64,000 nucleotides of DNA from a candidate division TA06 bacterium (GCA_016235665.1 JACRJI010000013.1:1-64000), one strand, 5' to 3'. Positions 1-28,798 are shown, numbered from the stretch's first letter. The notes: a model not told the origin generated them from the letters alone. A program made the numbers and translations.

Positions 1-2
1 TG

Positions 3-2816
3 GCGGCCTACGGAACGGCAGGGGAGGGCTACATAGCCAATACGGTTCCGGCCGGCATGGTCTGGAACACCGGCACGGCGGCCGGGGTGGTGACGGCCGT
101 CAACAACGGCACCTTCATGATCATGCACCGCGACCACGGCATGTACACCGGATGGGGCGAGCCGGCCTTTACCAGCACCAACATTCCCAGCCTGACCAAT
201 AATCTGTATCCCTTTGTATTCTCCATGAACTGCCAGACCGGGGCATACCAATACAGCGGCGAGGCGTTTTCCGAAGCGTTTTACCGCAGCAAGTACGGGG
301 CTTTGGGCGTGATGTGCGCCACCGAAGTATCGTATTCCTTCGTCAACGACGCCCTGATCATGGGGATCAGCGACGGGATGTGGCCCAATTTCAATTCCAC
401 CAACAACTGGGACGTGCCCAATGCCGGCACCGGCCAGACCTACGAGCGTTACACCGAGGACCTGAGGCCGGCCTTTGCCATGGCCTCCGGCAAGTGGCAT
501 TTAATGACCCAGACCTACACCGATCCCGCCATCCCGGCCGACTACAAGGAATTCACCTGCCAGCTGTTCCACGTTTTCGGCGATCCCTTTATGACGTTCT
601 GTTCCCAGATCCCGGACACCTTTACTCTGACCTTCAATTCAACCATCCCCACCGGCACCCAGACCTTTAATGTCAACGTCAAGAACAAGGCCGGAGCCAA
701 CGTGCTGGGAGCTTTGGTGGGCGTGTACATGCCCAGCAACTCGCCGGAGATCGTGACCTCGGCCCTGACAGACGCCAACGGCAACGTTTCCATCACCATC
801 AATCCGCTGCTGGACGGGACGCTCTACGTCACCGCCACCAAGTCCAACTTCGTGCGCAAGGAGACCTTCACCACGGTCAATGCCGGCACCCCCACCAAAC
901 CGGCGATCACCAAGCTGCTGGACGGGGCCAAGCTGCCGGATCTGCGGCCCTACCTGACCTTTGTCTCCACCGATCCCCAGGGCAATACCATAGACTACCG
1001 GGTGATCTGGGACACCACCTCGGCCTTCACTTCGGCGGTACGCGACAGCTCCACCACCACCACTTATGCCAGCGGCGCCACGGTGAACTTCCAGTTCCCG
1101 TCCAACCTTACCGCCGGGAGGACCTACTGGTGGAAGGTGAAGGGCCGCGACCCGGCCGGCACCAATCTGTTCGGCCAGTCCAGTGATCCCCGGTCCTTTA
1201 CCATCAGCACTGACATCCCGGCCGGCACGGTCTGCTGGATGCACACCAAGGGCGGCCAGTTCACCTGCGACACCTACACCGGGGCCACCACGGCCCAGGG
1301 CGACAGCCTGATCCTGGCGGCGCCAAGCTCGGGTGCGGCCACCTTAATGACGGAAAATTTCGAAGGCGGCTCCCTCCCGGCAGGCTGGGATACCTCCGGT
1401 TCCTATCCGGCAAACTACGGTTGGTTGATCCGCACCAGCGGCGGCACACAGCCGCCCAGCTATGGCACTACTTACGAAGGGTGCCAGTTCCCGTCAACCA
1501 TGGTAACGCCTGCGGCCTCGGAGGAGATCATCACCACGCCCCAGTACCTCATGAATTCAGGGGCCCAAACTTGTTCTTTAAGCTACGGCTACGGAATGGA
1601 TCCCGGCGTAGCTGCGGATAGTCTGGTATTAGAGGCTAGTTTCCTTTCCGGCGGTTCATGGGGGACCTGGATTCAAGTTGACGGTCTGAACAACGGTACC
1701 ACTACTATTTCCGGAACCAGAAGCATTGGGCTGAATACCTTTATGCCCAAGGATGGGATACAACTGCGCTGGCGGTTCAGCCAGGGCGGGGGGCGAAACG
1801 GCCAGGACGCGGCCATAGACAACATAACCCTTAAGTACACATATTTGATCACTAATACCAACGGCACTATGACCTCGGGCCCGATATACTACAAGGACAT
1901 CACCAAGGCCGAGACCATTTCCCGCTCCTCTTACAGATGGGGCAAGGTCCTCTGGCGCAAGAAGGCCGCCACGGATTCCATCGGGGTTCAGGTGGAATAC
2001 TGCAACAACAATGTCTGGGCGCTGGTGCCGGACGCGGCCCTGGCCAACAACTCCAAGGGCTTCTTCAACCAGGCCTCGGCCAACGACAGCGTCACCCTGG
2101 TCACTTTGGATACCCTGACCTACGATAGCTTAAGGGTGATAGCCAAGCTTTACCGTCCGGCCTCCAAGGCCACCGCCAACCCGGTGCTTTACGACATCGA
2201 GTTCGCCCGGCCGGGCTACATGGCCCCGGATGCGGTCATGCTTTCCTTCTTTGCCGCCTTCGTCCAGAACAACAGGGCCGTGGTCCAGTGGCGCACCGAA
2301 AGCGAACAGGATTGCTACCAGTGGGTGGTGGAGAGGTCCGCTTCGCCCGACGGCCAGTTCACAGAACTGGGCCGGCTTGACGGAAACGGCACCAGCAGCC
2401 AGCCCAACGAATACAGCTACAGCGACGCTGCGGTGCTGACCCCCGGAGTCTATTATTACCGTATTACCGAGATCGGCAAAAGCGGAGAGAAGACGGTATT
2501 CGGACCGGTCAGCGCCAGCATCGGCCTGGGCGCTCCGGCGGAATACGCCCTGCAGCCGGCCTACCCCAACCCCAGCCAGGGAGGGGCCACCATAAAGTAT
2601 TCGCTTAAACAGCCGGGCCAGACCCTGCTTAAGGTTTACAACGTGCTGGGCGAAGAGATCAAGACCCTGGTCAATAGCCGGCAAAGCGCCGACTATTACC
2701 AGGTGAACTGGGACGGCCGGGACAAAAAGGGGAGGCTGGTTTCCAACGGTGTGTATTTCTACAAACTGGTCTCCGGAGACTATTCGTCAACCAAGAAGCT
2801 GACAGTCCTCCGTTAA
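3..2816 (+). CDS. C25 (gingipain-like) cysteine peptidase with C-terminal sorting domain, 5' truncated
   Basis: The reading frame is already open at the left edge, so the N-terminus lies outside the window. The visible protein starts inside a family C25 peptidase domain. A His in an HRDHG motif (codon at 135-137) and a Cys in MNCQTG (codon 231-233) sit where the gingipain His/Cys dyad is expected. Then come Ig/FN3-like domains (about nt 600-1210), a jelly-roll (MAM or immune-inhibitor-like) domain (about 1340-1850), a domain with a conserved CYQWVVERS stretch (about 2220-2520) that recurs before the tail of two neighbours, and a FlgD-like/type IX sorting domain (YPNPSQGG, VYNVLGEE, SNGVYFYKL, final Arg). 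Expected role: exported protein-degrading enzyme, surface-attached or released through type IX-like secretion. The C25 assignment rests on motifs. Whether the start carries a signal peptide and propeptide cannot be seen. Confidence 0.85.
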   Translation, partial: AAYGTAGEGYIANTVPAGMVWNTGTAAGVVTAVNNGTFMIMHRDHGMYTGWGEPAFTSTNIPSLTNNLYPFVFSMNCQTGAYQYSGEAFSEAFYRSKYGALGVMCATEVSYSFVNDALIMGISDGMWPNFNSTNNWDVPNAGTGQTYERYTEDLRPAFAMASGKWHLMTQTYTDPAIPADYKEFTCQLFHVFGDPFMTFCSQIPDTFTLTFNSTIPTGTQTFNVNVKNKAGANVLGALVGVYMPSNSPEIVTSALTDANGNVSITINPLLDGTLYVTATKSNFVRKETFTTVNAGTPTKPAITKLLDGAKLPDLRPYLTFVSTDPQGNTIDYRVIWDTTSAFTSAVRDSSTTTTYASGATVNFQFPSNLTAGRTYWWKVKGRDPAGTNLFGQSSDPRSFTISTDIPAGTVCWMHTKGGQFTCDTYTGATTAQGDSLILAAPSSGAATLMTENFEGGSLPAGWDTSGSYPANYGWLIRTSGGTQPPSYGTTYEGCQFPSTMVTPAASEEIITTPQYLMNSGAQTCSLSYGYGMDPGVAADSLVLEASFLSGGSWGTWIQVDGLNNGTTTISGTRSIGLNTFMPKDGIQLRWRFSQGGGRNGQDAAIDNITLKYTYLITNTNGTMTSGPIYYKDITKAETISRSSYRWGKVLWRKKAATDSIGVQVEYCNNNVWALVPDAALANNSKGFFNQASANDSVTLVTLDTLTYDSLRVIAKLYRPASKATANPVLYDIEFARPGYMAPDAVMLSFFAAFVQNNRAVVQWRTESEQDCYQWVVERSASPDGQFTELGRLDGNGTSSQPNEYSYSDAAVLTPGVYYYRITEIGKSGEKTVFGPVSASIGLGAPAEYALQPAYPNPSQGGATIKYSLKQPGQTLLKVYNVLGEEIKTLVNSRQSADYYQVNWDGRDKKGRLVSNGVYFYKLVSGDYSSTKKLTVLR

Positions 2817-2835
2817 GATCATTAGAGGTTTTAAC

Positions 2836-2871
2836 AAAAGCGGCGTTTCATCGGTTTGAAGCGCCGCTTTT
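2836..2871 (+). terminator. Rho-independent terminator after the C25 peptidase
   Basis: A perfect 10-bp stem (aaaagcggcg / cgccgctttt) encloses a 16-base loop. The A and T ends of the arms make it usable in both directions. It lies 19 bases after the stop codon. Confidence 0.85.
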
Positions 2872-3015: not shown

Positions 3016-3084
3016 ATCAGCTCACTCCGGACCCAAGCTTAACCCTGATCAAAATATTTTAAAAATAAATAACAGGTGGTCATT

Positions 3085-5700
3085 TTGACAAGCAGACATT
3101 TTTTTCGCTTAGTACTGATCGCATCAATGCTATTGGGCTCCTCTTTTGCCCGGGGGCAGGAGGACATGGAACCAAGGATGCTGATCCGGGTGGACATCTC
3201 CAACCCCGCGGTCCTGCTGGCGGTCTCAAAACTGCCCCAGGGAATTGACGTGGCGGCCTGCCGTCCGGGCGAGTACATGGACATAGTGACCAAGCCGTCA
3301 CAGCTAAGCCTTTTTACCGGGGCCGGGATATCTTACCGGGAGCTGAAAGGTTTTGCCGGTGACATGTCCAAAGCATCATCTTCCAAGGCGGCCTACCATT
3401 CCTACGACGGCATCAGGGCCGAGCTGAAGCAGATAGCGCTGGATCATCCCACCATTACCAAGCTTGACACAGTGGCCGTGGCGGCCCAGGGGGGCAAGGT
3501 CTGGTGCCTTAAGGTTTCCAGCAACCCCACGGTGGACGACAATTCCCGCCAGGGCATCCTGGTCATGGGCAACCATCACGCCCGGGAGTGGATGACTCCG
3601 GAGATCTGCCTGTATATCGCCAATTACCTGACCAACAATTATAACCCGGCGGGCACGGATTCAATATCCACCATGGTCAAGACCAAGGAGATATACATCG
3701 TAACATCCGTCAATCCCGATGGTTTCATCTATGACCACGGCGGCACAAATGTGGTGCCGGCCTCCCCGACCCTTTTGTGGCGCAAGAACCGCCGGGTGAA
3801 CAGCCCCACCGTGTTCGGGGTGGACCTTAACCGGGGCTACGACGGCTCGGTGGACGGAGACATCCTGGGGGAATGGGGAGGATCCATCAACAGCTACACC
3901 AGCCCCGATTCCAGCAACGATGTTTTCTACGGCTTTTCACCCAGCGGCGAGCCGGAGCAGCAGGCCATGATGAAGATCGTTAAGGACCACAACATCGTAT
4001 TGTCCATTTCATACCATACATACAGCGAACTGGTGCTGTGGCCGCTGGGCTACGTGGACTCCACCGTCAAGCGGGCGCCGGACAGCCTGCAGCTGAGGTA
4101 CTTTGGCCAGCAGTCGGCCATCCGTACCAAAAGATACCGCAGCACGTTGGGCTACACCCCCCAGCAGTCCTCGGCCCTGTATCCCACCACCGGTGATTCC
4201 GACGGCTGGATCTACGGCTACGGCCTGACCCAGCTGGGGCGGGTGATATTCTCATACTGCGTGGAGGCGGACACCGCCTTTTACACCCCCGTTGCCCACA
4301 TCGACTCGGTCTGCCCCCAGACCCTAAAAGGCTTTATGTACCTGGCCATGCGCACCGACAGCATCGTCACCACTACTTCGCCGCCGCCTGTGCTGCCGCC
4401 TCCGGTCACCGGTGTAACTTTTCCCACAGCCAGCACCGATTACCGGTTAAGCTGGAGCCTGCCCAACCCGGCCTCCAATCCCACTGCCTACGAACTGCAG
4501 GAACTATCTGGATTCCAGTCCACCACCGACACGGTGGGGGCGGCCGCCAACCCCAACATCGCCCTGGACAGGTTCGTTTCCAACACGGTCCGGATGTACT
4601 CCGGCAGCCGCAGTTACCGCAGCGGAGTGGGCAACCAGTACAATATCGCCAGCATCACCACCACCAAGCCGTATCCGGTAACTTCGGCTAAGGATTCCTT
4701 CAGTTTTTACAGCTATCAGGGCATGACCACCTTTGACCGGATGTGGGTGGAGATCTCTCTCGACGGCCGGCAGTGGAATCTGCTGGGCAAGCTTTACCAG
4801 AACGCCTTGTCCTGGACCAAGCGGGCCTTTGCCATCGATTCCTCCGCCTATTTCGGCAAGTCGGTGTTCTTCCGCATCCGGCTGGTGGGCGACGGGGTGG
4901 CCGCCTCGGACAGCGTGTACATAGACGACATCAAACCGGTGGCGGCATTCACTTCAACCACCACGGTATCCAATACCATCACAGCCAGCAACTACCTGAT
5001 CACCGGCAAGACAGCCGGTTCCACCTATTATTATAGGGTGCGGGGGTTTAACGCCAAGCGGGGCTGGGGAGATTGGGACCAGCTTTACAAGGTCAATGTC
5101 ATTATGGGGCCAATGGCGGTGGAACTCTCGGCCTTTACCGCCCAGGCCGCCCCCGGCGGGATAAACCTTACCTGGCTGACCCAAAGCGAGAACGACTGCT
5201 ACCAGTGGGTCATAGAACGATCTGACCAGCCGGAGGCCGGATACATTGAGATAGCCCGGCAAAGCGGACAGGGGACCACCGCCAGTTCCTGCCAATATAA
5301 ATATTTTGACGCCAACCCGCCGGCCTTGGGCCAGCTTTATTACCGGCTGTTGGAACTGGATACCAAAGGCAACCAGACGGTCTACGGCCCGGTCAGCGTG
5401 TTATCGGCAGGGGATCGATCATTCAGCTTTGGACTCGGCTCCGCCAGCCCCAATCCGTTCAAACAAACAACCACGATCAATTATCAATTGTCAAAACCGG
5501 GAATGGCCGGCCTTAAGATTTACAACATCACCGGGCAGTTGATAAGGACATTGGATGAGGGTTACCGGATTTCGGGAGAGCATAGCATCAGTTGGGACGG
5601 CCGGGATGACAATGACCGCATGGTCAGAAACGGTGTCTATCTTTACCGTCTAAGTTCAGGGGACTTTTCCTCCTGCAAAAGATTGATCTTGCTGAGGTAG
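3085..5700 (+). CDS. Secreted M14 zinc carboxypeptidase with jelly-roll, FN3 and sorting domains
   Basis: TTG 3085 is preferred because an AGGTGG ribosome site sits 5 bases upstream; an in-frame GTG lies at 3076. A signal peptide (about 25 residues) precedes an M14 peptidase domain (about 95-420). The HARE zinc motif gives His165 and Glu168, a SYHTYSE motif gives the third ligand His311, and a CVEAD motif places the catalytic Glu at 394. It should remove C-terminal residues from peptides outside the cell. Beyond the enzyme is an FN3-like domain that looks interrupted by a jelly-roll insert (about 440-680), then the CYQWVIERS domain shared with the C25 protein, then the type IX-like tail (SPNPF, IYNITGQL, NGVYLYRL, final LLR). 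It appears monocistronic with its own promoter. It would complement the C25 and S8 endopeptidases encoded nearby. Confidence 0.9.
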   Translation: MTSRHFFRLVLIASMLLGSSFARGQEDMEPRMLIRVDISNPAVLLAVSKLPQGIDVAACRPGEYMDIVTKPSQLSLFTGAGISYRELKGFAGDMSKASSSKAAYHSYDGIRAELKQIALDHPTITKLDTVAVAAQGGKVWCLKVSSNPTVDDNSRQGILVMGNHHAREWMTPEICLYIANYLTNNYNPAGTDSISTMVKTKEIYIVTSVNPDGFIYDHGGTNVVPASPTLLWRKNRRVNSPTVFGVDLNRGYDGSVDGDILGEWGGSINSYTSPDSSNDVFYGFSPSGEPEQQAMMKIVKDHNIVLSISYHTYSELVLWPLGYVDSTVKRAPDSLQLRYFGQQSAIRTKRYRSTLGYTPQQSSALYPTTGDSDGWIYGYGLTQLGRVIFSYCVEADTAFYTPVAHIDSVCPQTLKGFMYLAMRTDSIVTTTSPPPVLPPPVTGVTFPTASTDYRLSWSLPNPASNPTAYELQELSGFQSTTDTVGAAANPNIALDRFVSNTVRMYSGSRSYRSGVGNQYNIASITTTKPYPVTSAKDSFSFYSYQGMTTFDRMWVEISLDGRQWNLLGKLYQNALSWTKRAFAIDSSAYFGKSVFFRIRLVGDGVAASDSVYIDDIKPVAAFTSTTTVSNTITASNYLITGKTAGSTYYYRVRGFNAKRGWGDWDQLYKVNVIMGPMAVELSAFTAQAAPGGINLTWLTQSENDCYQWVIERSDQPEAGYIEIARQSGQGTTASSCQYKYFDANPPALGQLYYRLLELDTKGNQTVYGPVSVLSAGDRSFSFGLGSASPNPFKQTTTINYQLSKPGMAGLKIYNITGQLIRTLDEGYRISGEHSISWDGRDDNDRMVRNGVYLYRLSSGDFSSCKRLILLR

Positions 5701-5787
5701 TCCGGGAACCAAAAGACCCTGAAAGTAATCTAACATAGCTTGCTTCCGCCGGGGCGGGAAATAAATGATAAAAATGGCAAAAAAAAC

Positions 5788-5874: not shown

Positions 5875-8595
5875 ATGAACCGAAAATTGTTCACAATTTT
5901 GGGTCTGGCGCTGTTACTGTTCTGCTCGGTTGCAGTTCAGGCCAAGCCCAGGGAAAAGGGCAGGGCAAAGGAAAAGGCAATGCCCATAAAGATGCCGGCC
6001 ACGGCCAAACTTGTGGTCGATACAGTTTTCATGGATAATTTTGAATCTGATACCATTGTATGGACCACCGAAGATTTCTTTGTTCAGGATTATTCATACT
6101 GGCACATTTCCTCCCGCAACCCGTATGGCGGTTCGGGAAATTCCTGGTGGTGCGGCACAGATTCTGCAACCGGCAACTGGGTAAACCCCGCAGGAGGTTA
6201 TGCTTCCAGCTGGGTGCAATTCCTGTATTCTCCCGTGTTTGATCTTACTGCCATAACAGCGGACACAGTTCTGCTGAATTTCATGCACTATTACAGCGTG
6301 GAAGGTCCAAGCGGCGGAATTGACTGGGATTGCGTAAATTTATGGGGTTCCACCGACGGCGGCAGCAACTGGTTCGTGATGTTTCCGGATACGGCCCGTT
6401 GCGGAGCGGATAAAGCTTATAATTTAACAGCAGCCTCGGCTTATTCTTATTTGGGTGTGACCCCGTTTTCTACCAAGGTCCCGGGCTGGGGAGGAGCCGA
6501 TAAGACCTGGAAACCGGTCAGCTATGACCTGACCCCGTATAAGGGTGACAGCTTGAAATTGCGTTTTTCCATGCTCAGCGACGGTGCAGAGGATGATTCA
6601 TCGGCTGGTGGCAGCTACAGCGGGGCTTGGTTTATTGATAATATCAGCGTGGATACATTAAGTGCGGGAGGTTCGTCTGCTGCCATATTTTACGATGATT
6701 GCGAGGGCGGCAATCTTGGCTGGACCACCGGGGTGAAAGAGCCCAGGATCAACTGGTGCTTAAACGGGAACCGCACCAACAGCGGTGCCCGGGCCTGGTA
6801 CAACGGCGACACCACTACATATATTCAGGCTGACGGCAATTCCGACGCTCTGACATCACCATTCATCAACCTGACCGAAGTGAAGAACACCCAACCGTGC
6901 ATAGCCACCTTTAAGGCTTGGGTGGATATGCCCAAGGTAAGCGGTGGGTACACCCGCGACTATGATTATTTTGAAGTTTTTATTTCGGACGACAGCGGAG
7001 CCACCTGGGATTATGTGAACGTTTATGCCGGGCCGACCTCCCCTCAGATGTCATGGAATCCGATTGTAAGCAATTTGTTTTATGGGGAAATCTTACTAAC
7101 CGCCTATGTCGGTAAGATCATTCAGATCAGGCTTGAGATGAACACCAGTGCAGACGCCTTGCCCCACGGAGAAGGACTTTACCTGGATGATTTCATGGTC
7201 ACCGGAAAAGGCCGCGATGCTTTGCCCGCCCCCAGCACAGTGTGCCTGGTGGACAACGATGGAAACGCCGCGGATATTTCGGATAACTCCTGGACCAAAT
7301 ATATGGAAGCATCACTGGCTAGTCTGGGCTATAAATATTCAGTGGTTACCATAGGTTCAAATAAAACGATGATTCCCGGTTATCTGGAGCAATATCCCCT
7401 GGTGATCTGGAACCTGGGATCAAATTTCAATTACCGGGCCGGAGTCAACTACCTGGCTCTGACCTCGACGGATCAGGAATGCATCCTTTCTTACTTGAAC
7501 AACGGCGGTAACCTGTGGATGTCCGGGCAATATTTCTTCTTCGCCAACGGCACCCAGCTGGACACTACCGTTCACCCAAATATCTGGATGGACTACCTGC
7601 ACCTGGCCCCGGAGAACGGCTGGGCTCCCACAACAACCTACCAGGGATATGGAGTGGGGGGCGATCCGATCGGCGACGGATTGTCCGATTCGCTTTTGTA
7701 TGACAGGCTTAACGGCGGCTACCCCTGGACCGGACCGACCAAGGCCTATTCTCTTAACCCTGACAGCGCCAACTATCCGGTGGTTGGTTTTATAAAGAAC
7801 GACGATAGCACCTTCAACGGTCTGAGATATCAGGATGCCGGTCTGGGCTATAAACTAATTTATACTTCATTCCCCTACGAGGCTGTTTCGGCCCCGGAAA
7901 AAAGGGACACTTTAATGGCCCGGGTTATCAATTGGCTTAGGCCCGGGTTGAACGCGGATTACATGCCTCCGGCGATTCCCCAGGGCCTGACCTTGACCCA
8001 GAGTTACGACACGGTCAAGTGCGTCTGGCTGGCCAATTCCGAGGTGGACATTAAAGGTTACAATGTCTACCGCTCTCTGCAAAGCGGGATCCCGACCTGG
8101 AGCAAATTAGGCACAGTGCTGGCCCCGGACACGACTTTTGCCGATACCACAGTTCAGGCCGGCTTGACCTATAATTACGCTTTAACGGCCTATGACACTT
8201 TGGTTCCGGCCAACGAAAGCCTGAAATCCCTGTGGTCCCGGATTACGGTAACGGCCTGGAAACTGGGAATTGAAGGACAGCCGGTAAGCGTGATTCCGGC
8301 CCGGTTCAGCCTGGAACAGAACAAGCCCAATCCCTTCAAGGGCAATACCGAGATCAAATTTGCCCTGCCCAACGCCTCTCAGGTGGAGCTTGGTGTTTAC
8401 AACGTGGCCGGACAAAAGGTGTCCGCGCTGGCCTCCGGTCATTATTCCGCCGGATACCACAGCATCCGCTGGAACGGCAAGGACGGACAGGGCCGGATGC
8501 TATCCAATGGCGTCTATTTCTACCGGCTGGAGGCCCGGGGACAGAGCGGCCAGGAGCGCTTGAGCCAGACCAAACGACTGATAATTGTGAAGTAG
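5875..8595 (+). CDS. Secreted multidomain exoprotein with type IX-like sorting domain
   Basis: The ATG follows a GGAGG site by 8 bases and opens a clear signal peptide ending VAVQA. A Lys-rich stretch (about 24-45) follows, then two consecutive jelly-roll (immune-inhibitor or MAM-like) domains (about 50-260 and 265-445). A Rossmann-like region at about 455-695 starts TVCLVDNDGN and contains NNGGNLWMSGQ and VINWLRPG; it resembles ThuA/class I amidotransferase-like folds and recurs in the next protein and in the subtilase. An FN3 domain (about 705-795) and the FlgD/type IX tail (KPNPFKGN, VYNVAGQKV, SNGVYFYRL, final IVK) complete it. I see no peptidase motif. A binding or structural role is plausible, but the function is unknown. 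The next gene begins 16 bases downstream, so the two are co-transcribed. Confidence 0.85.
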   Translation: MNRKLFTILGLALLLFCSVAVQAKPREKGRAKEKAMPIKMPATAKLVVDTVFMDNFESDTIVWTTEDFFVQDYSYWHISSRNPYGGSGNSWWCGTDSATGNWVNPAGGYASSWVQFLYSPVFDLTAITADTVLLNFMHYYSVEGPSGGIDWDCVNLWGSTDGGSNWFVMFPDTARCGADKAYNLTAASAYSYLGVTPFSTKVPGWGGADKTWKPVSYDLTPYKGDSLKLRFSMLSDGAEDDSSAGGSYSGAWFIDNISVDTLSAGGSSAAIFYDDCEGGNLGWTTGVKEPRINWCLNGNRTNSGARAWYNGDTTTYIQADGNSDALTSPFINLTEVKNTQPCIATFKAWVDMPKVSGGYTRDYDYFEVFISDDSGATWDYVNVYAGPTSPQMSWNPIVSNLFYGEILLTAYVGKIIQIRLEMNTSADALPHGEGLYLDDFMVTGKGRDALPAPSTVCLVDNDGNAADISDNSWTKYMEASLASLGYKYSVVTIGSNKTMIPGYLEQYPLVIWNLGSNFNYRAGVNYLALTSTDQECILSYLNNGGNLWMSGQYFFFANGTQLDTTVHPNIWMDYLHLAPENGWAPTTTYQGYGVGGDPIGDGLSDSLLYDRLNGGYPWTGPTKAYSLNPDSANYPVVGFIKNDDSTFNGLRYQDAGLGYKLIYTSFPYEAVSAPEKRDTLMARVINWLRPGLNADYMPPAIPQGLTLTQSYDTVKCVWLANSEVDIKGYNVYRSLQSGIPTWSKLGTVLAPDTTFADTTVQAGLTYNYALTAYDTLVPANESLKSLWSRITVTAWKLGIEGQPVSVIPARFSLEQNKPNPFKGNTEIKFALPNASQVELGVYNVAGQKVSALASGHYSAGYHSIRWNGKDGQGRMLSNGVYFYRLEARGQSGQERLSQTKRLIIVK

Positions 8596-16668: not shown

Positions 16669-19600
16669 ATGCGGAAAATCCTGTTAGCCATCTCTATTCT
16701 GGTCGTAATTTCTACAGCGTTCATTCCGGCTCATGCCGGGGAACGGGCGGCCATCAATGCCGGTGCCATAAAAACAGAGCTTTGGCATAACGGTCTGATG
16801 GGGGACACCACCGCCAGCCTTCTATTCCCGGCCGGGCTTTACCAGGGGGCATCCCTGCTACGGCTTGGTAGTTTGTGGTTCGGGGGATCGGTGGATGGAA
16901 AACAGAATTTTGGTGTCAGTTGCGGGGATATTACAACCTCGGGGCAGGCCGTTAGCGAATGGACTCCGGACAGCCTGGGGGTTCAGGTTTTCGTGCCAGG
17001 TTCCAGGGCTCCATTGGAGCTTAAGCTGAACCTGACCGATGACGATCCGGCGGCAAATAAGGGCATCAACCTAGGGATAACCGCCTCGGTAAAGGCCCAT
17101 CAGTGGAGCTATCTGCCGGTTGATAAGCTCTACCTGCTGGAATACTCATTCAGGAATGATGGTGCTGCTCAGATAGACAGCGCCTATGCCGGATTGTGGC
17201 ATCTGGGCAATGTTTTTAAAACCCAGGCTATCAATACTGAGAACATTGACTATACCGGTTATGATGTTAACGTGGACCCGCTTAATGGAACCGTCCGCAA
17301 TATGCTTTATGTGGCAGCCGATTCGGTGCAGTGTCAGAATACATTTGGAGTAAGCTCTCCTTATATTGGTTTCCGGTTATTGCATGCAGTTAATCCGAAC
17401 GGCAGTCCTGCGGTTTTAAGCGGTGCCTGCTCCTGGCGAGGCGCTTCGAACTCTCCCCAGAGCGATGCCTCATTGCTGGATTACCGTAGCCGCTATTTCT
17501 ACCTTTCCCGGGGAAAATTTGATGCCGAGTTGATTCCCCGGTTCAATGTCCCCAAACTTACAATAGATAACACTCACCTTAGAATTGACGGCAAGGTGTT
17601 GACTGAAGTGGACGGAGTTTGGGATGTAAATGACACATCGCACATAGGTCAAAATTACTATATTGGAGGAATCTTTAACGCTTCCAGTGGCATCATTACC
17701 CTGGGCACTCCCAAAGCCGACAAACTGAAATTAGTGGCTAAGGAACAGGACTCGGAACTTGATACTTTGACTGTTCAAACTCAGAACCTGCCACTGGCTC
17801 AGGTAACCGGGGTTTACGACAATGCCACGGGTACAGGTACCAATTACTACAGCGGGGGAAGTTTTGTTTCGGCTACCGGAGTCATCACCTTGGGGACGCC
17901 GTATGTAAAACTGAATACGGTAAGCCACGAGGAGGATTGGGCCTCCGATGATTACACACTCTATGCCCAGATAACACCGTTGTACCAAGTGATCAGCGTT
18001 TACGACAACCCTGCCGACACCGGAACGGAATATTATGCCGGGGGGACTTTTAACGAATCCTCAGGGCAGATCACCCTGGGCACGGCTTACGCCAATTATG
18101 GCAGCGCCCCGCTATATGTAAACTACAAATGGCGGGAAGCCTCGCCATTCCTTTATGTTGACTACAGCTATAAACTGAATAATGTGGTCACTAGCTACAA
18201 ATACTACCATACCAAGACCGGGGTGGTGCCCACCGATTATACCAATCTGACCATTTCCGATCCCACCGGCCTAGAGGAAGTGGCCGGGGTTTACCGCCAG
18301 AGCGATACATTAATGTCAGGTACCGATTACTACATAGGCGGCAGTTTTGACAAGGGAACCGGCCAGATAATGCTGGCAACGCCGCTCCCGGATGACACCG
18401 CCGATTATTACCTGCGGGAAAATTATATGCTGGATATGGTCGGCACTCCCAACGACAGTTTCATCTGGCTGGGGATAGGGATCTGGCCGGACTACGACAA
18501 GGTGGTGGAGATAGTTGGGATCTATGATAACAGCTCCGGAACCGGCACCGATTACTTCGCTGGGGGCAGCTATGATCCGGTAACCGACCTGATCACACTA
18601 GGCACACCCTTTGACGGTGGAGACATGATGTCACCGGTCTTCATAACTTACCGTTACCTGAAACTGACCAACGCCCTGGTTAAGTATCATAGCAATGACC
18701 TGGGTTCCCAGAACGTGATGCTATCGGTGGGGCCGTGGAACATGAGTCCAGGAGATTCCGCTAAAGCGGTATTTGCGGTGGTGGCTGGTAACAGCCTGGC
18801 CGAGCTCCAGGCAACCTCTGACTCGGCCCTGTATATATGGAACAACCCGGGTGCGGCGGTAACCACTACCAAAGGCTCGGTTTCCGGGCAGGTGGCCCGC
18901 ACTTTGGGCCGGGGTATGGTGGAAAATGCTGTGGTCACAGCCTATCAGGGTCCGACCCCGATTGATTCCGGTATCACCGATGGTACCGGGCGCTATTTTG
19001 TAGCCAACCTGGAGGCTGGTGCATATGATTCCCTAGTAGCAACTTCAACGGGATATTTACAGAGTGCAATTTTATTCAATGCCGACATCACTGCCGGGCA
19101 GGATACTACCGGCTTGGATTTTGTACTGACTTCAGTCAATGCTGGTCTCAGCGGCTACGTTTTCAGGTCCGACAGTTCTACTGCTGTGGCCGGAGCGTTG
19201 GTATTCCTGCAGGGAGTGAACTATGATAGCACTTTTACCGATATTGGCGGATATTATTCGTTCAAGTCCGTACTGACATCAACCACCGACAGTCTGCTGT
19301 TCTCTGCTCCCGGATGCGTGGCAGAGGTCATCGCCAACCTGAACCTTCAGGCAGACTCCGCCATGGCAGTAAACAAGGTACTGCATTCTGCCGGAGGCTG
19401 GCTAGACGGGCGGATCACCAAGTCCGACAGCTTGACCCCGGTGGCCAATGCCATAGTGAGCGTAACCGGACCGGTATCGGCCTCCGATACCACCGATGCT
19501 TCAGGTAATTATAGTTTTACCGGACTGGCGGCCGGAACCTATGATATCAGTATTACCGCCTCAGGATATGCCATGCAGAATATCTCGGGAATGGCCGTCC

Positions 19601-21310: not shown

Positions 21311-21385
21311 AATGATGCCGGCCGTATGTTGATAGAATCACGGTCAATTGGGCTGGTATCATTTATCAAATGATGCCAGTTTTTT
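21311..21385 (+). promoter_or_regulatory. Candidate transcription attenuator: mutually exclusive antiterminator and terminator hairpins
   Basis: Segment A (21311-21323, aatgatgccggcc) can pair over all 13 positions, with two G-U pairs, with segment B (21351-21363, ggctggtatcatt). Segment B can instead pair over 12 positions with segment C (21368-21379, aaatgatgccag), forming a compact hairpin with a 3-base loop followed directly by six T residues. A and C are near-copies competing for B. That is the arrangement of an antiterminator and terminator. It ends 6 bases before the AGGAG site of the gene at 21403. The signal sensed is not evident; I recognise no known riboswitch consensus. Confidence 0.6.
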
Positions 21386-21402
21386 ATTTAAGGAGTTTTG
21401 TC

Positions 21403-22923
21403 ATGGGAAGAGTTATTTTATTAGCCATGGTTTTAACCGTGCAAAGCTGGGCCCAGCAATGGTCGCCCGCCGTCAATCTAATGCTATCTGATCCCGGATC
21501 ATCCTGGACCGCCTCTAACCAGGCCCGCAGCCTGGCGGTCCAGGGGGACACCGTGCATTTGGTGTGGTTCAACTCTACGGAAGTGTTGGCCAATATGGGA
21601 CACCAGATTTATTACAAAAAATATAACGGAGCTTTATGGGACACCAGCAATACTCTGATAGGTTATATGGGAAATTACCGGAGGCACAGTTGGTATCCGT
21701 CCTGCGCCATGGGGCCCGGGGGTGACCTGCATGTGGTTTGGGAGACCAATGACTTTGTCCAGACCAGCGACGGGGCTTCCATATACGACATTGCCTATCG
21801 CCAACTCAGCCACGGCATATGGACTCCAAGTCTAAGTGAAAACCCGATCAAGGTTACAGGGAATGTTTCTCAAGGCTATTCATGGCGGCCGGTGATCGCT
21901 TGTGGCTTGGATAACATTGCCCACATAGCCTGGCAAGATAACCGGCAGGGTACATTTAAAATATTCTACAGATCATTGACGAACGGTAGCGCTTGGAGCG
22001 ATTATTTATGCCTTAGTCCTCAGGGAGTTTATGCTGGGTTTCCCAGCATAGCATTGTCTGGCACCCAACCTGCAGTGGTCTGGCAGGATTTTAGAAATGG
22101 AAGTAACCAGATATACTTTGCCCAAAAAACGATGTCAGGCTGGGGCCAGGACAGCTCTATCAGCCAGAGCAATTTCGGGGCCTTTGCCCCGTGCCTGGCC
22201 GGGGATCAAGCCGGGAACTTGCATGTTGCATGGGAGGATTTGCGCGACGGCAACTTCGAGATATATTATCGCCGTTTCAATGCCCAGACCCAGCTATGGG
22301 GGAATGTTCTTAGGCTGACAAAAGATCCCTTTTATTCCCGCCAGCCGTTCTTGCTTTGTCAGGACGACAGCACGGTAAGTCTGTTCTGGTCCGACGATCG
22401 TAACGGAAGTTATGAGATCTATCACCGACAGTCGGTTAATAACATTTGGCAGCCCGAAACCACCATTACCACCTTTAATGGTTCAGCATCTCTCAATCCC
22501 TCGGCCGCCATGGATCATCTGGGCAATCTGCACCTGGTCTGGTCTGATTTCGGCGTACCCTATTTGGCCCCGGATATTTTTTATATGACGGGAGTTTATG
22601 CTAAAATAGCAACATCTGAAAATCAGCCTCCTGTCCCAGGATCAGCCGTCCTGGCAATGCTTCCGGCCCGCCCAAATCCCTTGCGTGACAGGACCAAAAT
22701 ATCTATGACAACGGCACAGAGCGGGTGGGCCCGGGTAAGTGTTTACAATATCGCCGGACAGCTGGTGAAGGAGATTTACCGCGGTCAATTGGCCGGGGGA
22801 CAACATGAGTTTGAATGGGATGCCAGGGACGGCAAAGGGGACAGGGTCAGTAACGGCCTTTATCTTACCCGGGCGGAATCGTCCGGGGCCGCAGTTACCG
22901 GTAAAATAATGGTGGTGAGGTGA
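21403..22923 (+). CDS. Secreted beta-propeller protein with sorting domain
   Basis: ATG 21403 is preferred over an in-frame ATG at 21370, because an AGGAG site lies 7 bases before it and the product then opens with a clean signal peptide ending SWAQQ. The upstream ATG also lies inside a terminator hairpin. Six repeats of about 55-60 residues carry a signature like VAWxDxRxGxxxIYYR (for example IAWQDNRQG, VVWQDFRNG, VAWEDLRDG), as in sialidase/BNR-like propellers, followed by the type IX-like tail (RPNPLRD, VYNIAGQLV, SNGLYLTRA, final VVR). No catalytic residues were recognised, so ligand binding is more likely than hydrolysis. The stop overlaps the porU-like start region, which means translational coupling. 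Being first in the operon, it may work with the secretion machinery or simply be its cargo. Confidence 0.85.
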   Translation: MGRVILLAMVLTVQSWAQQWSPAVNLMLSDPGSSWTASNQARSLAVQGDTVHLVWFNSTEVLANMGHQIYYKKYNGALWDTSNTLIGYMGNYRRHSWYPSCAMGPGGDLHVVWETNDFVQTSDGASIYDIAYRQLSHGIWTPSLSENPIKVTGNVSQGYSWRPVIACGLDNIAHIAWQDNRQGTFKIFYRSLTNGSAWSDYLCLSPQGVYAGFPSIALSGTQPAVVWQDFRNGSNQIYFAQKTMSGWGQDSSISQSNFGAFAPCLAGDQAGNLHVAWEDLRDGNFEIYYRRFNAQTQLWGNVLRLTKDPFYSRQPFLLCQDDSTVSLFWSDDRNGSYEIYHRQSVNNIWQPETTITTFNGSASLNPSAAMDHLGNLHLVWSDFGVPYLAPDIFYMTGVYAKIATSENQPPVPGSAVLAMLPARPNPLRDRTKISMTTAQSGWARVSVYNIAGQLVKEIYRGQLAGGQHEFEWDARDGKGDRVSNGLYLTRAESSGAAVTGKIMVVR

Positions 22924-22925
22924 AT

Positions 22926-25900
22926 ATGAGATTTAGAACACTTATACCGCTTTTAGGACTGCTGGTTATGGTCCTGAATTCTGCCTGGGCCGGCGTCAAT
23001 GTATCGGAATCCACCGATCAGGGAATTGTAGTGGAACTCTCCTGTCCCCAGCCGCAATTTGAGCAGGTTCTGATAAATGGGATGGAATATTTCAGGGTCT
23101 CAGCCGTAGGCTGCCCCGGTCTGACCGACCCCGGCCGTCCGTTTCTGCCGGTAGTAGGAACGATGATATTTGTGCCACCCAACACTATTCCTGTGATAGC
23201 ATCCACCGAGCTGGCAGAGGCAATAAAATATAAAAAGATCCCGGCACCGGCTTACGAAATCCAAATGAACAAGGAAACAATCCCCGATCCGGCTGTGTAC
23301 CAGGGTGAACAGGTTTATCCGGCCGATATAGTAACCATCTCCCCGCCGGTCAGGGCGGGCCTTCACAAGATGGCTTTTATTTCCTTCAATCCGGTGCGGT
23401 TTAACCCGGCCAGCGGCAGCCTGCTCTATGTTAAAAGCATCAAGATCCGGATCAAATTCCGTACGTCCGGTCTAGGCGACCAAGCATTGGCAGCGGGGAA
23501 GGCGGGCCAGCTGGGCGCCGGTATCGGCCGGATCGCCGCAAAAAGTTCTGCAAATCCAAATATGATGGCAGGATGGGCCTCCCGTCCCGCTACCTCTAAT
23601 AAAGTTAAATCAGACACATGGGCCGATACTCTTCCCTATAAAATATTGATAGAGGAAGAAGGCATTTATAAGATCGGTTATTTTGATCTGTTGCAGGCCG
23701 GACTCAATCCCGGCTGGTTCGATCCCCGCAGCTATAAATTGTTCAATCAGGGGAGGGAAGTTCCCATCTATTTCAAGGGTCAGGCAGACGGCGTGTTTGA
23801 TCAGGAAGATTATTTTGAGTTCTACGGACAGCGGTTAGAAGGTGACAGCAGTTACTACCACCCCTATTCCCGCGATAATGTTTACTGGCTGGGAGCCGGA
23901 GGCAGTTTCGGTTCCAGGATGATAGAGGAGGATGGAAGCCCGGTAAACCAAAATTATATCCTAGCGGATTTCTATCGGGATGAGATCCATTTGGAAAAGG
24001 ACAGCCTTTTTTGCCGGCTGAACAGCGAATACAGCGACCAGACCGACCGCTGGTTCTGGCGGAGGATAGACGAAGGCGACAGTATGGTTTACAACTTCTT
24101 CCTTCCCGGTCTTGAATTCAGTGCGATTGACAGCGTTAACCTGACTTTGAGTCTGCATGGTTACACCTCCCTGCTGCCGGATACTTTTAACGACCATTGG
24201 GCTATTGCCATAGTTAACGGAACATCACTAAATAATTACATCAGATGGGATGGCCAGTCCCCGAATGTATTTAGGACGAAGATGGACCCTGCCTATCTGG
24301 TCAACGGGCAAAACAAGTTAGTGTTAAAGCACGGTCCGTTGAATAATATTGACAGTTATTTTTTTAACTGGATGGAAGTGGAATATACCCGGAGCTATGG
24401 GGCCGAAGAGGGACACGTGAAGTTCAAAGCCCCGCCCTATCGTTCAGACAGTCTGTTACGTTATAAAATTAACGGATTTGAGAGCCAGAGCATAGATCTA
24501 TATAAGTTGGGTGTTAGTAAGATTATCGGGACCGTGGTGGAACGTGATATTGACGGAGTGAGCTACAATTTGACCTTTGATGATAAGGCCTCCGCCCAGA
24601 CCGTCTATTTTGCTGTGCAAAACGATGATCAGCACAAGCTGAAACCAAAGGCCATCGTAGCTAATCATGTCCCGGCCCAGGCCTTGACGGATCCATCCCA
24701 AACCGCTCAATGCCTGATAATAACCACCGAAGAATTTATGGCCTCGGCGGAAAGACTGGCCGCCATCCGGAGGACCCAATATGAAGGAGCCAAGGTTGTG
24801 CTGGCATCCGATATCTACGATGTATTTAATTATGGGATCCCAACAGACCGTTCGATCAAAGATTATTTGCGTCAGGCTTTTATGACCTGGCAGGTTCCGC
24901 CGGACTATGTATTGCTGTTGGGCGGAGGGAGTTGGGACCCCCGCAACCTGCTGGGTCAATCTTCTGCCGATAAAATTCCGGTACATTTGACCAGGACCTC
25001 TGATTTTGGTCCGACTGCAGACGACAACTATTATGCCGATATCCTTGAAGATGATCAATTCTCCTCTTTGCCGGACATCGCGGTGGGCCGGATCCCTGTT
25101 TACACTGCCAACGATTGCCAGATCTGGGAAACCAAACAAATGTCCTACGAACAGCAACCTTTGCTGGACCAATGGCAGCGTAAATTTATGCTGATAGCCG
25201 GGAGGAACATGAATATCGGCGACCAGTTCAACCTGGAAAGCGACCAGCTGGCGGCTACACTGGATACCAGATATACGGTTTCAAAGGTCTACCACAACAA
25301 TCCTGCTACTACTCAGGATCTGATAGATCAGTTCAACCAGGGAGCTGTGCTGGCCGGGTTCAACGGGCATGGGGGCGGCCAGGTATGGTCCCATGACAGT
25401 TTTTTCCGGATAGACGAGGTGGCCAGGCTTAACAACTGGGGACGCTGGCCGTTAGTGGGTTCATTTACCTGTTACAGCGGAGCCTTTGATATTCCCGATA
25501 CTGTTTCCCTGTCCCAGGCCATGCTGTTAAAGACATACAGCGGCGCGGTAGGTGTTTTTGCCAGTTCCGGGCCATCATGGGAGAATGTCATAGAACAGGT
25601 ATTCTTTGGGGCGGTTGATGACTACGGTCTCACTAGGTTCGGTGATATTATCCTGAGTTCCAAGATTGAAATGGCTGCCAGATACGGCACGGTTTCCGGC
25701 CCGCCGGGGGAGATGATAACCAGTTATAATCTGCTAGGGGATCCCGGCATGCGCCTGGCAGTTTCCCACCGGGGCATTGAAATGGCGTTGCTTCCGGCTT
25801 CGCTTTTACCCGGAGATTCACTTACAGTCACCATCAACGGCGGGTTCAAAACCGGTAGTATTGCCTTGCTTTCCATATGTGACTCCATCGGTAGTCCCGC

Positions 25901-27797
25901 TGCTAGCTATTCGCTGTTTTCCAATACTCCCGGCATCGTTAATGCCAGGGTGCAGGTCCCGGTTGGCATGGGTACCGGAAAGGCTTTAGTGAAGGCATTT
26001 GTAAAAGACGCAGACAGCAGCTGGGCCATTTGCGGGGAAATGGGGATCAACCAGCCTGCATTTTATGGCATGGTTGCCACTCCCTCCCGACCGGTCAATC
26101 TTGTAGATAGCGTTGATATAGTCAGCGGAGCTTCCAGCCTGGGGGGAATAGACAGTGTATGGTGCGAATGGCGTACAGCAGAAGATAGAGCTGACACTTT
26201 CCCGCTCCAGATCACTATGATGGACAGTTCATATCCTGGTTTTTTCAAGCTAAGAGCCAAGATCATCAACGCCGGGCATGCTGACACGTTTCTCAACTAC
26301 CGGATCTGCCTTTCCGGTCCTGGGGTAGCTAAAGCAGTAAGCAAATGGAGTTCTCACCATCTTTTGAACCGTTCCGATCTGGCTCTGAAAAAAAATACCA
26401 ACGATGTTGATAATGCCTATTTTGGTGGGAAAAGGAGGCTGACTCTCTATATTGATGTTTATAATAAAGGGGATATCAGAGCTGACAGCATTCCCCTTCA
26501 TTTTTACCGCTATAACAACGAGCTTCCCCCGGTCGATTCCGTTACAGTGATACTGGATTCGATCCTGCCAGGCACCAAGACCGTAGTAGCTGTTCCCTGG
26601 AGCCTTGCTCCAGGGAGGGAGAGAGACTCGATTAAACTATCCATAGACCCCTCCGCTAAAATCATGCCGCCGGAACAGGATACCAGCAACAATCATTTTG
26701 CTTCGAACTATTATGACTTGCCCAGATACCCGGACACGAAAGTTTACCGCCAATTGGGCCTGTTGGGAAGCGGAGATACGGTGACATTGCTGCAAGCGGA
26801 CCCTCAGATCAGATATTACCTGCCCGATTCCAGTCTGAACGACAGCGCCGTTTCGATAGTGGGAGCCTTCCCCTTTGATCAATATTCCCCGTTGAACCCG
26901 GCCCGCCAGCCTGGATTGAAAATGATCGGGGACGAGTTCCGGGATGCTTATTTTGTGAATCTTACCGACTCAACCCGGGGACTGTCCAATGGAAAGAAAT
27001 TATGGGTCAGCCTGGGCTGGCCCCAGCTGGGTGAGGTCGAAGATCTGAGCCTGGTAAACATATACCGCTTTAATCCCCGTCAAAGTTTATGGCAAAAGGT
27101 CCCTGGCGGGGCTGACACGCTCAGCGTCTGGGGCCTTTCCGATTCTTTCGGCACCTTCATGCCCTTGATCGGAACCGACACTACTGCTCCCTTGATCACC
27201 GCCAGGCTGGATCAACAGTCCACCGGCTGGGGGAACGAAGTAAGGGTTTCCCGGCCCCAGTATTCGGTGTTGATAGAGGATCCCAACGGCATCAATCTGG
27301 ATTCGGTTTGGGTAAAAAAGGACGGGGCGCTTGTTTCCCGAAATGAGTATAATTTACCAACCCAGCCCCAGGATCACAGCAGTGTACCCCTGGCTTATGC
27401 CCCGTATCTGGCCGATGGACAGCACAATTTGGAATTCGGAGCCTGCGACAACCTGGGCAATAGATCGTCGGTCTCGGTGCAGCTTACGGTGGCGGCAACC
27501 TTTGGGCTTTACGAGATGGCCTGCTATCCTACTCCAGTCGACGGGAACTACGCCACTTTTTACTTTTTTGTGGGCGATCATACCGATAAGTACGAGCTGA
27601 AAATATTTACCGTGGCCGGAAGGCTGATCAAGACGTTCAATGGTGGATATGCCTCAGGTGTCAAGACGTTGCGCTGGGATGTTGATGATAACTCGGGGCA
27701 AAGGGTGGCTAATGGAGTATATTTTTATACTTTGGAAATTTGGTCGGGATCAGGGGCAAAACAGAAAAAAACCGAAAAACTGGCGGTATTACGATGA
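22926..27797 (+). CDS. porU: PorU-like C25 peptidase, candidate type IX secretion sortase
   Basis: ATG 22926 has a GAGGTG site; a GTG at 22920 overlaps the previous stop. The signal peptide ends SAWAG. A C25 propeptide-like region (about 25-185) precedes a segment typical of PorU (ILIEEEGIYKIGYFDL and a DQEDYFEFYGQR stretch, about 235-310). The C25 catalytic domain (about 590-960) has His815 in NGHGGG and Cys849 in SFTCYSG. Beta-sandwich domains and a FlgD/type IX tail end it (FTVAGRLI, ANGVYFYTL, final VLR), with YPTPV in place of the usual PNP. In Bacteroidetes, PorU cleaves sorting domains from cargo and joins the cargo to an anionic LPS, and it keeps its own tail. At 1623 residues this is longer than typical PorU. 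Its neighbour is a PorV/PorQ-like gene, which supports the assignment. An ordinary secreted gingipain-like protease is the alternative. Confidence 0.72.
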   Translation: MRFRTLIPLLGLLVMVLNSAWAGVNVSESTDQGIVVELSCPQPQFEQVLINGMEYFRVSAVGCPGLTDPGRPFLPVVGTMIFVPPNTIPVIASTELAEAIKYKKIPAPAYEIQMNKETIPDPAVYQGEQVYPADIVTISPPVRAGLHKMAFISFNPVRFNPASGSLLYVKSIKIRIKFRTSGLGDQALAAGKAGQLGAGIGRIAAKSSANPNMMAGWASRPATSNKVKSDTWADTLPYKILIEEEGIYKIGYFDLLQAGLNPGWFDPRSYKLFNQGREVPIYFKGQADGVFDQEDYFEFYGQRLEGDSSYYHPYSRDNVYWLGAGGSFGSRMIEEDGSPVNQNYILADFYRDEIHLEKDSLFCRLNSEYSDQTDRWFWRRIDEGDSMVYNFFLPGLEFSAIDSVNLTLSLHGYTSLLPDTFNDHWAIAIVNGTSLNNYIRWDGQSPNVFRTKMDPAYLVNGQNKLVLKHGPLNNIDSYFFNWMEVEYTRSYGAEEGHVKFKAPPYRSDSLLRYKINGFESQSIDLYKLGVSKIIGTVVERDIDGVSYNLTFDDKASAQTVYFAVQNDDQHKLKPKAIVANHVPAQALTDPSQTAQCLIITTEEFMASAERLAAIRRTQYEGAKVVLASDIYDVFNYGIPTDRSIKDYLRQAFMTWQVPPDYVLLLGGGSWDPRNLLGQSSADKIPVHLTRTSDFGPTADDNYYADILEDDQFSSLPDIAVGRIPVYTANDCQIWETKQMSYEQQPLLDQWQRKFMLIAGRNMNIGDQFNLESDQLAATLDTRYTVSKVYHNNPATTQDLIDQFNQGAVLAGFNGHGGGQVWSHDSFFRIDEVARLNNWGRWPLVGSFTCYSGAFDIPDTVSLSQAMLLKTYSGAVGVFASSGPSWENVIEQVFFGAVDDYGLTRFGDIILSSKIEMAARYGTVSGPPGEMITSYNLLGDPGMRLAVSHRGIEMALLPASLLPGDSLTVTINGGFKTGSIALLSICDSIGSPAASYSLFSNTPGIVNARVQVPVGMGTGKALVKAFVKDADSSWAICGEMGINQPAFYGMVATPSRPVNLVDSVDIVSGASSLGGIDSVWCEWRTAEDRADTFPLQITMMDSSYPGFFKLRAKIINAGHADTFLNYRICLSGPGVAKAVSKWSSHHLLNRSDLALKKNTNDVDNAYFGGKRRLTLYIDVYNKGDIRADSIPLHFYRYNNELPPVDSVTVILDSILPGTKTVVAVPWSLAPGRERDSIKLSIDPSAKIMPPEQDTSNNHFASNYYDLPRYPDTKVYRQLGLLGSGDTVTLLQADPQIRYYLPDSSLNDSAVSIVGAFPFDQYSPLNPARQPGLKMIGDEFRDAYFVNLTDSTRGLSNGKKLWVSLGWPQLGEVEDLSLVNIYRFNPRQSLWQKVPGGADTLSVWGLSDSFGTFMPLIGTDTTAPLITARLDQQSTGWGNEVRVSRPQYSVLIEDPNGINLDSVWVKKDGALVSRNEYNLPTQPQDHSSVPLAYAPYLADGQHNLEFGACDNLGNRSSVSVQLTVAATFGLYEMACYPTPVDGNYATFYFFVGDHTDKYELKIFTVAGRLIKTFNGGYASGVKTLRWDVDDNSGQRVANGVYFYTLEIWSGSGAKQKKTEKLAVLR

Positions 27798-27808
27798 GGA
27801 GAAGGAAT

Positions 27809-28798
27809 ATGAAAAATATATTTATCACATTTGTACTGTTGATAATGGCCACCGTGGTCAGTGCAGAGAATTACGGAGGGGAGTTTTTGAATCTGGGTGT
27901 CGGCGCTAGAGCCCAGGGTCTGGGTGGAGCTTACGGCCCGCTGGCCGAAGATGCCAGTGCCATTTACTGGAATCCGGCCGGGCTTTCCGGCATGATCCGT
28001 CCGGAAGTAATGTTCTGCCATACCCAGCTCTTTGGCGGGCTGGCCAACCATGATTTCCTGGGCCTGGCCTGGCCCTTAAGCAAGCGGCTGAGCTTGGGGC
28101 TGGGCTGGATCCGGCTGGGGGTGGATCATATACCACGTTTTTCGTACGATGTGGGGACCGTTTCAAACGGCAGTTTTGGCGACAATGAGAATGCCGTCTA
28201 CCTATCGGCTTCGTTTCAAAGGGAAACCGCTTCTTTGGGCAAACCGTTAAAACTATCGGCCGGCGGCAGCGTCAAGATAATATCCAACAAGCTGGATGAT
28301 CGCCAGGCTAGCGGGCTGGGGCTGGATTTCGGTCTACAGGCCAAGATTTGGCTGGCGGAGTGGCTGGCCGTCAGATCGGCTAACCAAGTGATTGTGGGGA
28401 TGGAGCCAGCCATGATGGGGCGTTCCAACTGGGGAACCATAGGTTTGAGCCTGTCAGCCCAGGATATAGGTGGAACCAGCATCTCGTGGAACACTGCCAG
28501 CCAGCAAAGCGATGTCCGGCCGGCCGGATACAAGGCCGGAATAGCATATACTCAGCCGATTTTTCCCTGGCACAGCCAGGTTATAGTTTCAGCCGAAGCT
28601 TCCAGCCAAAGCTATCAAAAAGGCCGGTTAGGGATTGAAATTGACTATCGTAATTTATTGTCGGCCAGGCTGGGCCGGGCTCAAAAGGAGCTTGTTTGGG
28701 GAGGAGGGATGAAGGTATGGCGGCTGAGATTTGATTATGCCTATACGCCCCACCAGCTGGGCAGTACCCACCGGGTGGGCTGTAGTTTCAAACTTTAA
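27809..28798 (+). CDS. PorV/PorQ family outer-membrane barrel protein
   Basis: ATG 27809 is chosen over an in-frame ATG at 27794. It has a GAAGGA site, lies 11 bases after the porU stop and gives a clean signal peptide ending VVSAE. The N-terminus of the mature protein (FLNLGVGARAQGLGG, then AIYWNPAGLS) is the hallmark of the PorV/PorQ (UPF0164) family. The rest is alternating beta-strands ending in an aromatic or hydrophobic residue, as expected for an outer-membrane barrel of about 330 residues. In type IX secretion, PorV shuttles cargo from the translocon to the PorU sortase. It has no sorting domain itself. The order porU then porV suggests a working pair, although UPF0164 proteins also occur outside type IX systems. 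Confidence 0.8.
   Translation: MKNIFITFVLLIMATVVSAENYGGEFLNLGVGARAQGLGGAYGPLAEDASAIYWNPAGLSGMIRPEVMFCHTQLFGGLANHDFLGLAWPLSKRLSLGLGWIRLGVDHIPRFSYDVGTVSNGSFGDNENAVYLSASFQRETASLGKPLKLSAGGSVKIISNKLDDRQASGLGLDFGLQAKIWLAEWLAVRSANQVIVGMEPAMMGRSNWGTIGLSLSAQDIGGTSISWNTASQQSDVRPAGYKAGIAYTQPIFPWHSQVIVSAEASSQSYQKGRLGIEIDYRNLLSARLGRAQKELVWGGGMKVWRLRFDYAYTPHQLGSTHRVGCSFKL

What the first reader, a model, noticed from the sequence alone, without database searches (positions are those of the whole stretch)
1..28798. A type IX-like secretion locus: PorU and PorV-like genes beside seven cargo proteins
Seven proteins (C25, M14, S8, Kelch, propeller and two others) share a FlgD-like/type IX sorting tail, and an operon encodes a C25 PorU-like protein and a PorV/PorQ-like barrel. 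In Bacteroidetes PorU and PorV remove the tail and attach the cargo. The PorU candidate also carries a tail itself, as real PorU does. LPS genes follow. The host is probably not a typical Bacteroidetes member, so this may be an early-branching or simplified version of the system.
Basis: partly seen in the sequence, partly recalled or inferred. Interest (0 to 1): 0.72.

Follow-up and report, generated by a model that had tools for sequence, protein, structure and literature searches.

The report
Second PorU-PorV pair outside Bacteroidota
A little-studied bacterial phylum (Candidatus Edwardsbacteria) carries the outer-membrane half of the type IX protein secretion system with dozens of tagged cargo proteins, and this window holds a cargo cluster plus a second, conserved PorU-like protease paired with its own barrel, while the motor known from Bacteroidota was not found.

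Summary
Seven proteins in 1-22923 end in a type A sorting domain over NCBI's cut-off. At 22920-28798 a PorU-like C25 gene and a PorV-family barrel overlap by ATGA. The host is Candidatus Edwardsbacteria/UBP2.

One correction matters. The window gene is not the canonical PorU, which sits on another contig (over cut-off, 10 of 10 genomes) with a PorV carrying a ~500-residue repeated insert. The window gene is a second PorU-clade paralogue, also in 10 of 10 genomes, with the catalytic His and Cys invariant and always followed by its own barrel. A tree groups it with PorU, not with the phylum's other C25 proteases.

Sorting domains encoded beside PorV-family barrels are a divergent class, which suggests dedicated anchoring pairs. 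GldL, GldM and GldN were not found, though no positive control was available; only Tol and ExbBD motors were seen. How transport is powered is open.

This is a new variant of a known kind.

The parts
3..2816 (+). C25 peptidase fragment (cut by the contig start) with type A sorting domain
   Evidence: Peptidase_C25 72 bits; TIGR04183 36.8 bits; no start codon because the contig begins here
3076..5700 (+). M14 zinc carboxypeptidase with sorting domain (cargo)
   Evidence: Peptidase_M14 177 bits; TIGR04183 32.0
5875..8595 (+). InhA-like MAM protein with sorting domain (cargo)
   Evidence: InhA-like_MAM 32.9 bits; TIGR04183 28.5
8612..11005 (+). Secreted protein, no catalytic domain found, with sorting domain (cargo)
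   Evidence: TIGR04183 44.8
11356..16464 (+). S8 subtilase with sorting domain (cargo)
   Evidence: Peptidase_S8 91.8 bits; TIGR04183 32.6
16669..21108 (+). Kelch / CarboxypepD_reg protein with sorting domain (cargo)
   Evidence: Kelch_1 94.5, CarboxypepD_reg 125 bits; TIGR04183 45.9
21370..22923 (+). Beta-propeller-type protein with sorting domain, directly upstream of the PorU-like gene
   Evidence: TIGR04275 44.6 bits; TIGR04183 24.1
22920..27797 (+). PorU-clade C25 protease, second paralogue (1625 aa), with a divergent C-terminal sorting domain
   Evidence: NF033707 319.7 bits; in 10 of 10 genomes of the phylum; His and Cys invariant; tree groups it with PorU
27794..28798 (+). PorV-family outer-membrane barrel paired with the PorU-like gene
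   Evidence: NF052325 106.7, NF033709 76.8 bits; ATGA overlap; follows the PorU-like gene in all 10 genomes
30157..32749 (+). HAD hydrolase, GT2 and GT9 (heptosyltransferase family) genes, LPS-type neighbours
   Evidence: same gene clusters beside the pair in 6 of 8 genomes with readable flank

Best explanation
The genome encodes a type IX-like secretion route. Cargo proteins with an N-terminal signal peptide and a C-terminal type A sorting domain would reach the periplasm by Sec, cross the outer membrane through the SprA homologue (contig C15), be taken up by a PorV-family barrel and be processed by PorU (contig C8). The window holds a cargo cluster and a second PorU-clade protease, translationally coupled to its own PorV-family barrel. 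Most likely this paralogue is exported by the same translocon, keeps its divergent sorting domain and stays on the surface bound to its dedicated barrel, where it acts as a second processing or attachment protease for a subset of cargo. Shown: genes, homology, conservation in all 10 genomes of the phylum, intact catalytic dyad, operon coupling and the divergent tails. Inferred: transport through SprA, surface location, tail retention and the sorting reaction.
For: SprA: TIGR04189 361 bits over a 200-bit cut-off, over cut-off in 10 of 10 genomes, collinear with F. johnsoniae SprA 6h3i. Canonical PorU 583 bits over cut-off, 10 of 10 genomes, followed by PorV. Window-type PorU 10 of 10, followed by a PorV-family barrel 10 of 10. 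Tree: window type plus canonical PorU plus P. gingivalis PorU against other C25, support 99/98. His and Cys aligned and invariant in all. The profile of the ten orthologues matches PorU 6za2 at 124 bits and mature gingipain at 79 bits. Six PorV-family genes lie next to a sorting-domain gene, p about 1e-6 to 1e-5. Sorting domains beside barrels score 24-87 bits against 77-127 bits for other cargo, p about 2e-6. One such pair has PorQ-like and PorZ-tail scores. 76 tails genome-wide.
Against: The window PorU-like and PorV-like proteins both fall under NCBI's equivalog cut-offs, and the barrel's profile matches no solved chain. About 450 extra residues including a CARDB match lie between the catalytic domain and the tail. 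No GldL, GldM or GldN was found, so a complete energised system is not shown. The comparison of tails uses only stretches fetched around barrels, C25 genes and other chosen sites, not the whole genome.
Confidence: 0.68

Rival explanations
1. The window C25 protein is ordinary cargo: a large secreted gingipain-like protease that happens to have a barrel gene next to it, with no sorting or attachment role.
For: It has a Propeptide_C25 and a sorting domain like cargo, and is 300 residues longer than the canonical PorU. Profile matches include gingipain propeptides and mature domains. Other C25 proteases in the genome are clearly cargo.
Against: It matches the PorU model over residues 240-956 and again at the tail, groups with PorU at 99/98, and is single-copy, present in all 10 genomes and always followed by its own barrel. 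The canonical PorU also has a Propeptide_C25 match.
Confidence: 0.25
2. The tails are generic FlgD-type Ig domains for surface-layer or cell-wall assembly and the SprA homologue has another job, so there is no type IX secretion here.
For: FlgD_ig also rings in organisms without type IX secretion. No motor or ring genes were found.
Against: SprA and PorU pass NCBI's equivalog cut-offs. Tails are C-terminal and pass TIGR04183. A PorV over the PorV-family cut-off sits directly after PorU. All 10 genomes have both SprA and PorU.
Confidence: 0.1
3. The system is a complete type IX system whose GldKLMN proteins are simply too diverged for the models used.
For: SprA, PorU and PorV are themselves far from Bacteroidota: 6h3i matches at 99 bits over a 1896-residue query.
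Against: GldM_1st at a loose threshold gave only weak sub-cut-off hits in 6 of 10 genomes; the best own-genome hit is a chemotaxis receptor. FGE-fold proteins (the PorK/PorN fold) are three, none in a ring-like operon. SprA and PorU models from the same source pass cut-off easily.
Confidence: 0.35

Closest known systems
Type IX secretion system of Bacteroidota (F. johnsoniae, P. gingivalis)
   Same: SprA/Sov translocon, PorU protease, PorV-family barrels, type A C-terminal sorting domains; adjacent porU-porV genes
   Different: Host in Candidatus Edwardsbacteria; GldL, GldM, GldN not found; PorV carries a ~500-residue repeated insert; a second conserved PorU-clade gene; SprA in synteny with type IV pilus genes
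NCBI families PorU2 (NF052324) and PorV2 (NF052325)
   Same: A second PorU-type and PorV-type set; the window barrel's best NCBI model is PorV2
   Different: Both window proteins score far under these cut-offs (187.9 of 450; 106.7 of 325), and the window protease scores higher with PorU itself
Type B substrate and SprF/PorP shuttle pairs of F. johnsoniae (PMC12618676)
   Same: A sorting-domain gene next to the gene for its own outer-membrane shuttle
   Different: Here the barrels are PorV-family and the tails are divergent type A-like, whereas in F. johnsoniae all type A tails use one PorV
Attachment complex PorU-PorV-PorZ-PorQ of P. gingivalis
   Same: Barrels paired with tailed surface proteins; a PorQ-like barrel beside a protein with a PorZ-like tail lies at C3 (L025)
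   Different: Below cut-offs; number of pairs is larger; no evidence on A-LPS

Membership tests
Type IX secretion system | SprA/Sov outer-membrane translocon | tested here: met
   TIGR04189 361 bits, cut-off 200; 10 of 10 genomes; matches 6h3i
Type IX secretion system | PorU protease | tested here: met
   Canonical PorU on contig C8, 583.5 bits, cut-off 420
Type IX secretion system | PorV carrier barrel | tested here: met
   NF033709 194 bits (cut-off 90) and Pfam PorV over cut-off, but under the stricter NF033710 cut-off (120.6 of 250)
Type IX secretion system | Cargo with type A C-terminal sorting domain | tested here: met
   Seven window proteins over TIGR04183 cut-off; 76 FlgD_ig tails in the genome
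Type IX secretion system | GldL/GldM motor and GldK/GldN ring | tested here: inconclusive
   GldL, GldM, GldN models gave no match in own genome; GldM_1st none over cut-off in 10 genomes; GldK model not run, only the FGE fold; no positive control available
PorU (NF033707 equivalog), window gene 22920-27797 | Whole-protein score over the curated cut-off | tested here: not met
   319.7 of 420 bits
PorU clade, window gene | Groups with PorU rather than other C25 proteases | tested here: met
   99/98 support, 32 catalytic domains, one Bacteroidota PorU with a long branch
PorU clade, window gene | Catalytic His-Cys dyad | tested here: met
   Invariant in ten orthologues and aligned with P. gingivalis PorU
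PorU clade, window gene | Cleaves sorting domains and attaches cargo; keeps its own domain | not testable with these tools
   needs biochemistry or proteomics
PorV family, window barrel 27794-28798 | Whole-protein score over the PorV-family cut-off | tested here: not met
   76.8 of 90 bits over the full model length; N-terminal motif shared with canonical PorV at E 4e-12

The most novel reading that the evidence does not exclude
Edwardsbacteria run type IX-like export without the GldLM motor. Energy would come from another source (ExbBD, Tol, or the type IV pilus machinery whose genes adjoin both core loci: pilB/pilT/pilC after SprA and the prepilin peptidase gene before PorU), transmitted through the repeated ~500-residue insert of PorV, with several dedicated barrel-protease or barrel-cargo pairs instead of one PorV.
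Probability: 0.2. Interest if true: 0.85.

Novelty: new variant of a known kind. Interest (0 to 1): 0.58.

Why it matters
[quoted passage not shown] Edwardsbacteria is not in that list. A translocon, PorU and PorV conserved across the phylum's held genomes, without a recognisable motor, would help separate the outer-membrane core from the energy chain and give material to ask what powers export and how the system arose. The two PorU-clade genes, each with its own barrel, make it testable whether PorU-type proteases specialise for different cargo.

Tried and rejected
The weak GldM_1st hit in the own genome was rejected as a chemotaxis receptor. FGE-fold proteins as PorK/PorN candidates: two are FGE-type proteins without a lipoprotein cysteine beside phosphoglycerate kinase, one is a lipoprotein next to a recombinase; no ring-like operon. 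Gingipain letters were not put in the tree; the phylum's own cargo C25 proteases served as the ordinary C25 set, and scores against solved gingipain were read instead. Calling the last-but-one gene of the PorU operon a second SprA: only a short shared beta motif is supported, and no solved chain matches, so it is noted, not claimed. The PorV-family count of 12 was trimmed in interpretation, as one scores better with BamG.

Full report
Observation. The window is bases 1-64000 of contig C13 of a 2.71 Mb genome in 16 contigs. Seven ORFs in 3-22923 end in a type A sorting domain over NCBI's cut-off of 23 bits; the eighth tailed ORF, 22920-27797, scores 21.7. The genome has 76 FlgD_ig tails; eight in 28.8 kb against 0.8 expected gives p about 2e-6. 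The first C25 ORF is cut by the contig start.

Host. SprA relatives named in genome contigs are Candidatus Edwardsbacteria and UBP2. The genome search holds 10 genomes of the phylum, one family and four genera. No paper in the library was found that links Edwardsbacteria with type IX secretion.

Translocon. SprA_N passes its cut-off at C15. The 1896-residue protein scores 361 bits with TIGR04189, cut-off 200, aligns collinearly with F. johnsoniae SprA, and all 10 genomes have one over cut-off.

Two PorU-type genes. NF033707 over the phylum gives one protein per genome well over cut-off (579-626 bits) and a second, of about 1600 residues, under it. In this genome the first is on C8, followed by PorV and an M6-like tailed protein; the second is the window gene. 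A tree of 32 catalytic domains puts the two types and P. gingivalis PorU together at 99/98 against the phylum's other C25 proteases; each type is one clade at 100/99. The single Bacteroidota PorU has a long branch and its exact place is unsure. The letters of that PorU were taken from the alignment printed. His and Cys are invariant in all. The window-type gene is followed by a PorV-family barrel in all 10 genomes (eight, two), and in the window the two overlap by ATGA.

Barrels and tails. Twelve or so PorV-family genes were listed; six lie next to a sorting-domain gene, which chance would give with p about 1e-6 to 1e-5. Sorting domains beside barrels are divergent: scored by a model of other cargo tails, they give 24-87 bits against 77-127 for the others left out in turn, p about 2e-6. 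Eight tails were counted as barrel-linked, two of them on the far side of the barrel (the M6-like protein and the C11 protein); one partial tail in L023 was in neither set, and only fetched stretches were scanned. One pair, at C3, has a PorQ-like barrel and a PorZ-like tail. In P. gingivalis PorU and PorZ keep their tails on PorV and PorQ (own knowledge); the divergent tails would fit such anchors.

Canonical PorV. It has 824-855 residues in the eight orthologues aligned. Its first 70 and last 275 residues match PorV, and about 500 residues sit where F. johnsoniae PorV has about 10. Some windows of the insert match one another at E 1e-7 to 1e-11, so it holds repeated units.

Neighbours. SprA is followed on its strand by an HhH protein and PilB, PilT and PilC genes in this genome; a PilB adjoins SprA in 7 of 8 genomes with readable flank. 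A prepilin peptidase gene precedes PorU in 8 of 10. After the M6-like gene come a 267-residue protein, a propeller lipoprotein, a 1132-residue protein with a short SprA-like motif and an Omp85 protein. LPS-type genes adjoin the window pair in 6 of 8 readable genomes.

Energy. GldL, GldM and GldN models gave nothing in the own genome. GldM_1st at a loose threshold gave sub-cut-off hits, the best being a chemotaxis receptor. The only ExbB/MotA-family proteins are in a Tol operon and an ExbB-ExbD-ExbD operon. No positive control was available, so absence is provisional. PMC12635249 describes ejection of the carrier complex by an energy chain in Bacteroidota; what does this here is open.

Known context. 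Abby et al. 2016 found T9SS only in Bacteroidetes (PMC4793230). A 2024 paper lists possible systems in six other FCB phyla (PMC11285876). Edwardsbacteria would be an addition, and the second PorU-barrel pair, the PorV insert and the missing motor make it a variant rather than a plain new member.

Noticed in passing
L021:6548-9061 (G000:C8:82548-85061): Canonical PorV carries a ~500-residue insert with repeated units between its N-terminal motif and the barrel, conserved in the eight orthologues aligned.
   Followed up: partly
L096:2069-5467 (G000:C8:90069-93467): 1132-residue protein near the end of the PorU operon with short SprA-like beta motifs; no Pfam family, no solved relative.
   Followed up: partly
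L019:1967-16318: SprA is in line with three PilB-type ATPases, PilT and PilC; a PilB adjoins SprA in most genomes of the phylum.
   Followed up: partly
L021:1430-2299: Prepilin peptidase gene directly upstream of canonical PorU in 8 of 10 genomes.
   Followed up: partly
L111:4151-9012 (G000:C15): ExbB-ExbD-ExbD operon with a TPR lipoprotein, a possible energy source for outer-membrane work.
   Followed up: no
L025:5542-8461 (G000:C3): Tailed protein with a PorZ-like C-terminus next to a PorQ-like barrel, both under cut-off.
   Followed up: partly
window 28946-33434: TyrRS, HAD hydrolase, GT2, GT9 and an HhH-GPD DNA-repair gene follow the pair; the HAD and glycosyltransferase genes are kept beside it in most genomes.
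   Followed up: partly
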